Assembly: GCF_001984215.1 (NCBI RefSeq)
Contig: NZ_CP019420.1
Coordinates: forward strand, 3,162,001 to 3,226,000
DNA: 64,000 nucleotides
From: Mycobacterium sp. MS1601
GTDB taxonomy: Bacteria > Actinomycetota > Actinomycetes > Mycobacteriales > Mycobacteriaceae
Reading direction: 5' to 3'
Shown: positions 42,674-44,228 of the stretch, in pieces
Position numbering within the stretch: the first letter of the stretch is position 1
Layout: each line of letters opens with the position of its first letter
Program-made: the position numbers and the translations under genes
The notes under the pieces: model-generated
Databases searched by the model: none
Seen by the model: only the letters and a program-made list of their open reading frames with translations
What the model was told of the DNA's origin: nothing

Positions 42674-43276
42674 ATGACCGACAACAAACCACGACTGTTC
42701 ACTGCACAACTGCGCGACGATCTGTTCCGCAAGCGGGTGCTGGTGCTCGACGGCCCACTCGATGATGACAACGGCACCGTGCTGGTGACCCAGATGCTCT
42801 CACTGGCCGCTGATTCCGACGATGACATCGCTTTGTGGATTCACTCGCCGGGAGGTTCGGTACCGGCCATGCTGGCCATCCGCGACGTCATGCGGCTGGT
42901 GCCGTCCGACGTCAGCACACTTGCTCTCGGATTGGCCTGCAGCGCAGGACAATTCCTGCTGTCATCCGGAACCCCAGGCAAGCGGGGCGCGCTGCGGCAC
43001 GCCAGAATTCTCATGCACCAGGGTTCGTCCGGTATCGCCGGTTCCGCCGTCGAGGTGGAAGTGCAGGCCGACGACCTGCGGTACACCCGCGACACAGTGC
43101 TCGGATTGATCGCGCAGGACACCGGTCAAGACATCGACCGTGTCTTCACCGATTCGCTGCACGACCGTTGGTTCACCTCGGAGCAGGCCAGGGAGTACGG
43201 GTTCGTCGACACCGTGGTGGACCGCTTCGAGCAGGTCGTGCCGAACCACAGGGCGCAGTTCGGAATCAGCGCATGA
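42674..43276 (+). CDS. ClpP-family serine protease subunit, catalytic triad intact
   Basis: A 200-aa ClpP-like protein distinct from the housekeeping ClpP1/ClpP2. The nucleophile is in GLACSAGQFLLSSG (Ser90), His115 in RILMHQ, and Asp164 in SLHDRWFTSEQA. Substrate-strand IHSPGGSV is present. Its stop overlaps the ATG of a second clpP-like gene, so the two are made together and may form a mixed tetradecamer. No AAA+ partner lies nearby. Confidence 0.9.
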   Translation: MTDNKPRLFTAQLRDDLFRKRVLVLDGPLDDDNGTVLVTQMLSLAADSDDDIALWIHSPGGSVPAMLAIRDVMRLVPSDVSTLALGLACSAGQFLLSSGTPGKRGALRHARILMHQGSSGIAGSAVEVEVQADDLRYTRDTVLGLIAQDTGQDIDRVFTDSLHDRWFTSEQAREYGFVDTVVDRFEQVVPNHRAQFGISA

Positions 43277-43875
43277 GCACCTACACCATCCCCAACGTGA
43301 TCACCCGCAGCCCTGCCGGCGAACGGGTCATGGATGTGTACTCGCACCTGCTGGCCGAGCGCATCGTCTATCTGGGCACCGGTATAGATTCCGGGGTCGC
43401 CAATGCGTTGATCGCCCAACTCTTGCACCTGGAAGCCGACAATCCCGAACAGGAGATCAGCCTCTACATCAATTCCGAAGGTGGTGATCTGTCGGCGATG
43501 CTGGCGGTTTACGACACCATGCGTTTCATCAAGGCGCCGGTGGCCACCACGTGTATAGGCCAGGCCGTCGCGGCGGGTGCGGTGCTGCTGGCAGCAGGTG
43601 CGGCCGGACGTCGAGCGGTGTTGCCGCACAGTCGAATTGTGCTGCATCAGCCCGCCGCGCAGGGCAGGGGCACCATCCCGGATCTGATCCTGCAGGCGGA
43701 CGAGGTGGTGCGGGTGCGCAGTCAATTGGAGGCCATCCTGGCGCGGCACACCGGACGTGGTGTCGAGCAACTGCGGCATGACACCGACCGCGACCGGGTG
43801 TTCGATGCACACGATGCGGTGGCGTATGGCCTGGCGGACGTTGTGCTGCAGGACAGAGATCGGGCCGATGGATGA
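43273..43875 (+). CDS. ClpP-like pseudo-protease (catalytic Ser replaced by Ala)
   Basis: A 200-aa ClpP homologue with the fold features YINSEGGD, PHSRIVLHQP (His125) and DTDRDRVF (Asp174). Where active ClpP has GQAAS, this protein reads GQAVA, so position 100 (codon 43570-43572, GCG) is Ala. It should be unable to cut peptides and may be structural, like ClpR in cyanobacteria and plastids. Coupled to the active ClpP by an ATGA overlap; converges on an XRE regulator. Confidence 0.9.
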   Translation: MSTYTIPNVITRSPAGERVMDVYSHLLAERIVYLGTGIDSGVANALIAQLLHLEADNPEQEISLYINSEGGDLSAMLAVYDTMRFIKAPVATTCIGQAVAAGAVLLAAGAAGRRAVLPHSRIVLHQPAAQGRGTIPDLILQADEVVRVRSQLEAILARHTGRGVEQLRHDTDRDRVFDAHDAVAYGLADVVLQDRDRADG

Positions 43876-43885
43876 GCCGGGTACC

Positions 43886-43908
43886 GGACCGCAGAGTTCG
43901 GACGGTCC
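43886..43908. terminator. Short hairpin between clpP-like gene and XRE regulator
   Basis: GGACCG (43886-43891) and CGGTCC (43903-43908) pair around an 11-nt loop between convergent stops. Weak compared with others in the window. Confidence 0.35.
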
Positions 43909-44228
43909 TATGCGGCCATCAACATGGGGCCGGTGGCAGTGCCGCCGACTCGGGTGAAGTCGGCCGCGATGCTGCCCAGCACACGAACCAGATTGACGTC
44001 CAACGCTCCGCATATGGCGGCGATCATCTCGCTGGAGGGTTCTTTGCGGCCGCGCTCGATCTCGGACAGGTACTGCGGTGACACTCCCGCGCGTTCGGCG
44101 ACGTCCACCAGACGGTCGCCGCGGCGCTCCCGGATGTCGCGGAGTCGACGGCCCAGGAGTTCCCGCCACAGCGGCTCGGGTGCCCGCACCGCTGCGCGGT
44201 GGCGGTGTATGCCGATGACCTCACCCAT
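43908..44228 (-). CDS. XRE-family regulator, ClgR/PopR-like
   Basis: A 106-aa protein with a Cro/C1 helix-turn-helix (LGRRLRDIRERRGDRLVDVA, then AGVSPQYLSEIERGRKEPSS). The SPxYLSEIERGRKE stretch is characteristic of ClgR and PopR, actinobacterial activators of clp genes. In Streptomyces, popR adjoins the clpP3-clpP4 operon, which parallels this arrangement. It lacks the C-terminal degradation tail seen in some ClgR proteins (it ends PMLMAA, hydrophobic with Ala-Ala, which could itself be a degron; inference). Confidence 0.85.
   Translation of the reverse strand: MGEVIGIHRHRAAVRAPEPLWRELLGRRLRDIRERRGDRLVDVAERAGVSPQYLSEIERGRKEPSSEMIAAICGALDVNLVRVLGSIAADFTRVGGTATGPMLMAA

What the first reader, a model, noticed from the sequence alone, without database searches (positions are those of the whole stretch)
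42674..44228. Active ClpP plus Ser-to-Ala pseudo-ClpP with a ClgR/PopR-like regulator
Two overlapping clpP-like genes are separate from the housekeeping pair. The first keeps Ser90/His115/Asp164. The second keeps His125 and Asp174 but has Ala100 (GCG at 43570) where the nucleophile Ser belongs. A convergent XRE gene has the SPxYLSEIERGRKE signature of Clp regulators. This mirrors clpP3-clpP4-popR of Streptomyces and suggests an inducible, mixed proteolytic ring with a structural, ClpR-like subunit, little described in mycobacteria.
Basis: partly seen in the sequence, partly recalled or inferred. Interest (0 to 1): 0.8.

Follow-up and report, generated by a model that had tools for sequence, protein, structure and literature searches.

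The report
Backup ClpP protease with dead ring
This mycobacterium carries a spare protein-shredding machine made of one working and one non-working subunit plus its own switch gene; it is a known actinobacterial kind of system, and comparison suggests that the second subunit lost its cutting site several times in evolution while the first kept it.

Summary
Gene A (42674-43276) keeps Ser90/His115/Asp164; gene B (43273-43875) has Ala100 in the nucleophile position; a convergent XRE gene (43908-44228) follows. The locus fits the PopR-controlled clpP3-clpP4 operon of Streptomyces: gene order, PopR-type operator at 42618-42630, and a regulator ending ...MAA. The Ala is no error: the 120 listed best matches to B (window included) all have it. 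In 202 distinct clpP pairs (regulator found beside 185), A keeps Ser-His-Asp in 202, B in 26; Streptomyces ClpP4 lacks the His instead. The shortest histories need five to seven losses and four to two regains. B keeps the docking Tyr in 199 and the N-loop Pro in 200 of 200 rows. Best explanation: an inducible backup Clp core in which B docks the ATPase and A cuts, as shown for ClpP2 and ClpP1 of M. tuberculosis and Streptomyces. Assembly, activity and induction are inferred. One paper already notes single triad-deficient ClpPs in Nocardia and S. coelicolor; the operon-wide pattern and the mycobacterial locus were not found in ten searches.

The parts
42618..42630 (.). PopR-type operator, palindrome CTGCTGACAGCAG, ending 43 bp before the start codon of clpP-A
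   Evidence: box C[TC]GC[TC]N3[AG]GC[AG]G lies within 160 bp upstream of gene A in 192 of 202 loci (30 shuffles: mean 2.9, max 7); resembles the PopR target printed in PMC9775585
42674..43276 (+). clpP-A (clpP3-type): catalytic subunit, Ser90/His115/Asp164
   Evidence: triad kept in 202 of 202 loci
42941..42943 (+). codon of nucleophile Ser90 of clpP-A (AGC)
43273..43875 (+). clpP-B (clpP4-type): probable docking subunit with a dead active site, overlapping clpP-A by ATGA
   Evidence: fold
43570..43572 (+). codon GCG = Ala100 in the position of the catalytic Ser
43645..43647 (+). codon of His125 of clpP-B
43792..43794 (+). codon of Asp174 of clpP-B
43908..44228 (-). popR-type XRE/ClgR-paralogous regulator, convergent, C-terminus GPMLMAA
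   Evidence: convergent in 185 of 185 loci where found (not found in 17), ends AA in 175 of 185

Best explanation
The locus encodes a conditional second Clp protease core. B forms the ring that binds the cell's own unfoldases (ClpX, ClpC1) through a canonical N-loop and aromatic docking pocket, but it cannot cut. A forms the opposite ring and supplies all catalytic sites. The regulator is a PopR: in healthy cells the housekeeping ClpP1P2 degrades it by its C-terminal Ala-Ala; when ClpP1P2 is blocked or overloaded it accumulates, binds the box at 42618-42630 and switches on clpP-A/clpP-B. Shown here: the genes, the Ala, its conservation, the operator, the C-terminus, the repeated loss. Inferred from homologues: assembly as A7 on B7, one-sided docking, activation of the operon, degradation of the regulator.
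For: A triad intact in 202 of 202 pairs, B in 26 of 202; in the 135 loci that came from whole-genome searches, 135 and 24. The housekeeping pair of 30 genomes (of 32 searched; loci were capped at 30) keeps the triad in ClpP2 of 29 and in ClpP1 of 30, so the loss is peculiar to B. B is otherwise constrained: docking Tyr (E. coli Y76 position) 199 of 200, F/Y/H at the F96 position 200 of 200, N-loop Pro 200 of 200, while its nucleophile column is more variable than 151 of 200 columns; A has Leu at the F96 position in 179 of 200 and invariant triad columns. dN/dS of B is 0.06-0.11 in the three pairs with dS under 0.6. A and B distances correlate, r 0.77, permutation maximum 0.16, though shared species history alone can give this. 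Operator in 192 of 202 loci; regulator convergent in 185 of 185 where found, ending AA in 175. Experiments on relatives: M. tuberculosis ClpP2 Ser-to-Ala grows, ClpP1 activity is essential (PMC9067928, abstract, section 5 part 2 and section 20 read); Streptomyces ClpP2 S131A keeps full activity, ClpP1 S113A does not, and ATPases dock on ClpP2 only (PMC9765437, passages); PopR is degraded by ClpP1P2 and is taken to activate clpP3P4.
Against: No expression, assembly or activity data for this locus, or for a purified ClpP3P4 core, were seen. A has Trp at the Y76 position in 156 of 200 rows, of unknown effect. All 114 Ala forms keep His and Asp, which simple decay would not predict; they may be needed for ring switching. 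26 of 202 B subunits are intact, so a dead B is not required. The box is not enriched genome-wide (11 sites against 27 for the backward control). S. cattleya single ClpPs with ClpX shortened the half-life of an antitoxin in E. coli (PMC4989188, passages); that host was not said there to lack its own ClpP, and the numbering differs.
Confidence: 0.74

Rival explanations
1. A and B do not pair mainly with each other but exchange into the housekeeping core: B joins ClpP1, or A joins ClpP2, to retune or replace one ring, as ClpP-ADEP does in Streptomyces.
For: A is ClpP1-like (best solved chains 8xn4_A and 8xon_A, not numbered in the listing, then M. tuberculosis ClpP1) and B ClpP2-like. S. hawaiiensis ClpP-ADEP works with ClpP2 in place of ClpP1 (PMC12607617, passages).
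Against: 217 of 219 fetched loci with A have B beside it, the other two being cut by a contig end (B without A was not looked for); the genes overlap by ATGA in the window. B's repeated loss of catalysis fits a fixed partner that supplies it.
Confidence: 0.15
2. B's inactivity is itself the function: poisoned rings act as a brake, or as a trap that holds regulators without cutting them.
For: Several losses suggest more than drift in one lineage; other Clp systems keep dead ClpR subunits (PMC7966870, passages).
Against: A is intact in 202 of 202 pairs, which a pure brake would not need.
Confidence: 0.07
3. B is a decaying gene on its way out.
For: Loss of a catalytic residue; the B frame is broken in two fetched loci, L021 and L054.
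Against: B is more conserved than A (mean column entropy 0.99 against 1.15); dN/dS 0.06-0.11; Ala in the 120 listed best matches.
Confidence: 0.02
4. The Ala is a sequencing or alignment error, or another residue nearby acts as nucleophile.
For: Thr follows the Ala in 47 of the 120 best matches; it is not conserved.
Against: none of the ten distinct 11-residue motifs of the 120 best matches holds a Ser.
Confidence: 0.01

Closest known systems
Streptomyces clpP3-clpP4 operon with PopR
   Same: Bicistronic second clpP pair, ClgR-paralogous activator, TCTGCC-N3-GGCAGA-type operator, regulator with two C-terminal Ala; same order and one tree with the window
   Different: Streptomyces ClpP4 keeps Ser and Asp but has Gly for the catalytic His (119 of 120 listed matches to the B of L140); the window has Ala for Ser and keeps His and Asp
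Housekeeping ClpP1P2 of M. tuberculosis and Streptomyces
   Same: A resembles ClpP1 (catalysis), B resembles ClpP2 (docking); ClpP2 catalysis dispensable by experiment
   Different: Housekeeping ClpP2 keeps its triad in 29 of 30 genomes; the window pair seems to have no propeptide (B begins MSTYTIPNV; inference) and has another operator
ClpR of cyanobacteria, plastids and apicoplasts
   Same: ClpP fold without a working triad, partner of an active ClpP (PMC7966870, passages)
   Different: B scores 164 of 263 bits on NF009204, which I recall as ClpR, and spans 176 residues where that profile has 195 positions; B is ClpP2-type and probably forms its own ring
ClpP-ADEP of Streptomyces hawaiiensis
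   Same: Accessory ClpP paralogue that changes the core
   Different: Gene beside an antibiotic cluster, closest to ClpP1, works with ClpP2

Membership tests
PopR-controlled clpP3-clpP4 operon | Two adjacent clpP genes apart from clpP1P2 | tested here: met
   ATGA overlap; housekeeping pair about 1.05 Mb away on the same contig
PopR-controlled clpP3-clpP4 operon | ClgR-paralogous XRE regulator distinct from ClgR (that it lies next to the operon in Streptomyces rests) | tested here: met
   43908-44228; 57% identical over 65 aa to the genome's own ClgR at C1:6232621-6232938
PopR-controlled clpP3-clpP4 operon | PopR box upstream of clpP3 | tested here: met
   42618-42630; 192 of 202 loci; printed target in PMC9775585 (passage)
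PopR-controlled clpP3-clpP4 operon | C-terminal Ala-Ala on the regulator | tested here: met
   ...GPMLMAA; 175 of 185
PopR-controlled clpP3-clpP4 operon | Regulator degraded by ClpP1P2 and activating the operon | not testable with these tools
   Needs experiments
Active ClpP | Ser-His-Asp triad in gene A | tested here: met
Active ClpP | Ser-His-Asp triad in gene B | tested here: not met
   Ala100
ClpR (cyanobacteria/plastid) | Scores above the family model | tested here: not met
   164.1 bits against 263 for NF009204; that this model is ClpR is recalled
ClpR (cyanobacteria/plastid) | Lacks a working triad and partners an active ClpP | tested here: inconclusive
   Lacks Ser; partnership inferred only
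ClgR (NF041677) | Score at or above 170 bits | tested here: not met
   75 bits

The most novel reading that the evidence does not exclude
In the Actinomycetes the docking ring of the PopR-controlled Clp core has been released from catalysis at least five times, more likely seven or more, by different residues (among them Ser to Ala, Gly, Trp, Phe or Glu; His to Gly or Asp; Asp to Ser, Asn, His or Thr), while the partner ring is never touched. A one-sided Clp core with a dead docking ring is therefore the rule in this system, a bacterial counterpart of ClpR evolved again and again, and natural evidence that ClpP2-type catalysis is dispensable.
Probability: 0.7. Interest if true: 0.72.

Novelty: new member of a known kind. 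Interest (0 to 1): 0.57.

Why it matters
Whether the second ClpP ring of actinobacteria needs to cut bears on Clp-directed drugs: in M. tuberculosis only ClpP1 activity is essential (PMC9067928). Nature seems to have repeated that experiment several times in the PopR-controlled pair. The locus also means that some mycobacteria (20 of 396 genomes of the genus sampled, window included) have a spare, probably inducible core that M. tuberculosis, with two clpP genes (PMC3258218, abstract in a listing), lacks; such species may respond differently to ClpP inhibitors. A review states that beta-lactones are lethal to S. coelicolor lacking clpP3 and clpP4 (PMC9775585, passage).

Tried and rejected
Regulon search: CTGCTN3AGCAG occurs at 11 places in the genome, fewer than the backward control (27), so the box alone does not predict a regulon. 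Synteny: the neighbouring MFS and 44286-44753 genes lie beside the operon only in L277, the nearest relative (89% identity in A), among the 25 other mycobacterial loci, and gave no match in L006-L223; the loci hold only some 1.5 to 3.5 kb on each side, so this is weak. Error, pseudogene and alternative-nucleophile readings were tested and rejected. Rows dropped: L128 from the careful tree, because no regulator was found and it sits with the housekeeping pairs, though it stays in the 202 and 200 counts; L060, L061 and L136, housekeeping pairs, used as outgroup only; L021 and L054, whose B frame is broken, left out of the trees and of the 200-row counts but counted in the 202 as incomplete triads; L170 and L196, without B because the contig ends. 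The loci are not a random sample: the lists are capped, and beside the loci that these calls delivered I chose 40 places from each list for spread. Named loci L144-L223 were found with patterns that include the catalytic His of A, so their A-His is biased; the 135 others are not. A motif for Trp in the nucleophile position was found in 3 of 200 genomes of one family and not pursued. Literature: ten searches of open-licence papers only; the original PopR papers (Viala 2000, 2002) were seen only as cited, and figure S4 of PMC9067928 was not seen. The identity of the three large ATPases was not settled (one search failed and was not repeated).

Full report
WHAT IS THERE. Between 42618 and 44228 lie an operator, two overlapping clpP genes and a convergent regulator. 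A (42674-43276) has Ser90, His115 and Asp164; B (43273-43875) has Ala100, His125 and Asp174. The two are 34% identical over 167 residues. The genome (6.83 Mb, 6 contigs) has two further clpP genes, the housekeeping pair at C1:4258354-4259498, both intact, one ClgR over the family's cut-off (C1:6232621-6232938) and four matches to the ClpB_D2-small domain of Clp ATPases, none of them in the window. No ATPase of that kind is encoded beside the pair, so the core presumably borrows the cell's ClpX or ClpC1 (inference).

THE ALA IS REAL. The 120 listed best matches to B (of 5634 found), the window's own copy included, have Ala at that position; the names given include Mycolicibacterium, Antrihabitans, Lentzea, Amycolatopsis and Actinokineospora; 119 keep both His and Asp, one has Tyr for His. 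In the genus, 20 of 396 sampled genomes, the window's included, carry A at E 1e-60 or better. The 25 other mycobacterial loci examined all have A Ser-His-Asp, B Ala-His-Asp, a convergent regulator ending in AA, and the box; by their scores five of these are records met twice, and one (L293) comes from an 89% complete draft with 5% contamination. Named carriers include M. hodleri and M. frederiksbergense and, by database names, M. tokaiense, M. murale and M. neoaurum.

ONE SUBUNIT IS NOT TOUCHED, THE OTHER IS, REPEATEDLY. Of 219 loci (L005-L223) 217 hold both genes; less 12 duplicates and 3 housekeeping pairs, 202 remain, the regulator being found beside 185. A is Ser-His-Asp in 202. B is Ser-His-Asp in 26; the others are AHD 114, GHD 20, SGD 9, SHT 5, GHE 3, WHT 3, EHN 3, EHH 3, GHQ 2, SHS 2, one each of GHA, AAQ, FHN, WHD, AQD, SDD, TQE, SGE, SHN and GND, and two broken frames (L021, L054). 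A multiple alignment gives the same letters as the pairwise one in every row. For the 135 loci that came from whole-genome searches, without a motif in the selection, A is intact in 135 and B in 24. These loci were partly chosen for spread from capped lists, so the proportions are not population frequencies. The Streptomyces form is SGD: of the 120 listed matches to one such B (L140) 119 have Gly for His; the other is a 331-residue protein with a second Pfam domain, read as Ser-His-Asp. As a control, 32 genomes picked to span these states were searched for housekeeping ClpP2 and 30 loci delivered: ClpP1 is Ser-His-Asp in 30 and ClpP2 in 29.

HOW MANY LOSSES. A maximum-likelihood tree of 78 representatives, built on both proteins without the B triad columns and rooted on housekeeping pairs, needs 9 changes between intact and lost; starred branches force 7, bootstrap trees give 8-9, and shuffled labels need 16.4 on average. 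Taking the root as intact, the 9-change histories have five losses and four regains, six and three, or seven and two; if the triad can never come back, 16 losses are needed. The seven-loss reading is: an SHS row; the Streptomyces SG clade; a clade with Asp then Ser lost; an SDD row; a Gly clade; a clade with Trp, Phe, Ala and Gly; and the large Ala clade with the window, inside which Actinophytocola algeriensis and Actinomadura hibisca would have regained Ser.

B IS NOT DECAYING. In 200 rows the Tyr that corresponds to E. coli ClpP Y76 is kept in 199, F, Y or H stands at the F96 position in 200, and the N-loop Pro in 200. The B nucleophile column is more variable than 151 of 200 columns; its His and Asp columns rank 77th and 103rd; the three A triad columns are invariant. 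A has Trp (156) or Tyr (35) at the Y76 position and Leu at F96 in 179. The correspondence to E. coli residues rests on motif alignment and on the residues named in PMC4416901 (passages). dN/dS of B is 0.06, 0.08 and 0.11 in the three pairs with dS under 0.6; against the window dS is near saturation. The AlphaFold model of B (mean pLDDT 88, pTM 0.82) matches chains of the M. tuberculosis ClpP1P2 entries 6iw7 and 4u0g best (TM-score 0.92, 44% identity); 4u0g_A, among them, is named ClpP2. Residue 100 lies between strand 90-99 and helix 101-107, where ClpP has its nucleophile.

THE SWITCH. The box C[TC]GC[TC]N3[AG]GC[AG]G lies in the 160 bp before gene A in 192 of 202 loci; 30 dinucleotide shuffles gave a mean of 2.9 and a maximum of 7. 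The loci are related, so this is no probability. In the window it is CTGCTGACAGCAG at 42618-42630. A review gives the S. lividans PopR target as TCTGCC-3N-GGCGAATCTGCC-3N-GGCAGA and says that two C-terminal alanines very likely form the degradation signal (PMC9775585, passages). The regulator is convergent in 185 of 185 loci where it was found and ends AA in 175 of 185. The strict box occurs at 11 places in the genome, fewer than the control pattern, so specificity must come from more than this core; one of them, 43585-43597, lies inside gene B.

MECHANISM. In M. tuberculosis ClpX and ClpC1 dock only on ClpP2 (PMC4416901, passages); only ClpP1 activity is essential and a ClpP2 Ser-to-Ala strain grows (PMC9067928). 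In Streptomyces ClpP2 S131A leaves full activity and ClpP1 S113A removes it; PopR is degraded by ClpP1P2, so clpP3P4 stays off while ClpP1P2 works (PMC9765437, passages). A is ClpP1-like and B ClpP2-like. A dead B and an invariant A are what this division of labour predicts when a pair is free to specialise further. Inferred steps: assembly as A7 on B7, docking on B, induction.

WHAT IS IN PRINT. PMC9067928 states that Nocardia asteroides, S. coelicolor and Leptospira interrogans have one clpP allele lacking catalytic residues (its figure S4 not seen). So single cases were noticed. Ten searches of open-licence full texts, judged by their listings and by passages of the papers opened, showed no description of a mycobacterial clpP3-clpP4-popR locus nor of the operon-wide repeated loss; Mycolicibacterium with clpP3 gave no paper. 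Papers outside that library may hold either. I therefore file the locus as a new member of a known kind, with an evolutionary pattern that seems undescribed.

Noticed in passing
L254 (G667:C1:92289-92900): A housekeeping-type clpP2, next to an intact clpP1, has Trp for the catalytic Ser (GQAAWASAVLL). The motif occurs in 3 of 200 genomes of that family, two of one genus; the other two were not looked at.
   Followed up: partly
L177 (Actinophytocola algeriensis) and L215 (Actinomadura hibisca): B has Ser-His-Asp although it sits inside the Ala clade, as if the nucleophile had come back.
   Followed up: partly
44286-44753 (-): 155-aa ORF without a Pfam or NCBIfam match at E 0.01; found beside the operon only in L277; holds an imperfect box-like palindrome at 44586-44598.
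   Followed up: partly
42590-42673: The box lies in a short gap shared with a divergent MFS_3 transporter gene (41012 to about 42589, start judged by eye), which could be co-regulated in this species and L277.
   Followed up: no
whole genus: Patchy presence (20 of 396) and different flanks suggest horizontal spread or repeated loss; in the tree the window's clade also holds Pseudonocardiaceae.
   Followed up: partly
L021, L054: The frame of gene B is broken while gene A is open; could be assembly errors.
   Followed up: no
45832-47742 (+): Looks by eye like a BioY plus ECF ATPase and transmembrane set (vitamin uptake); no family search was run on it.
   Followed up: no
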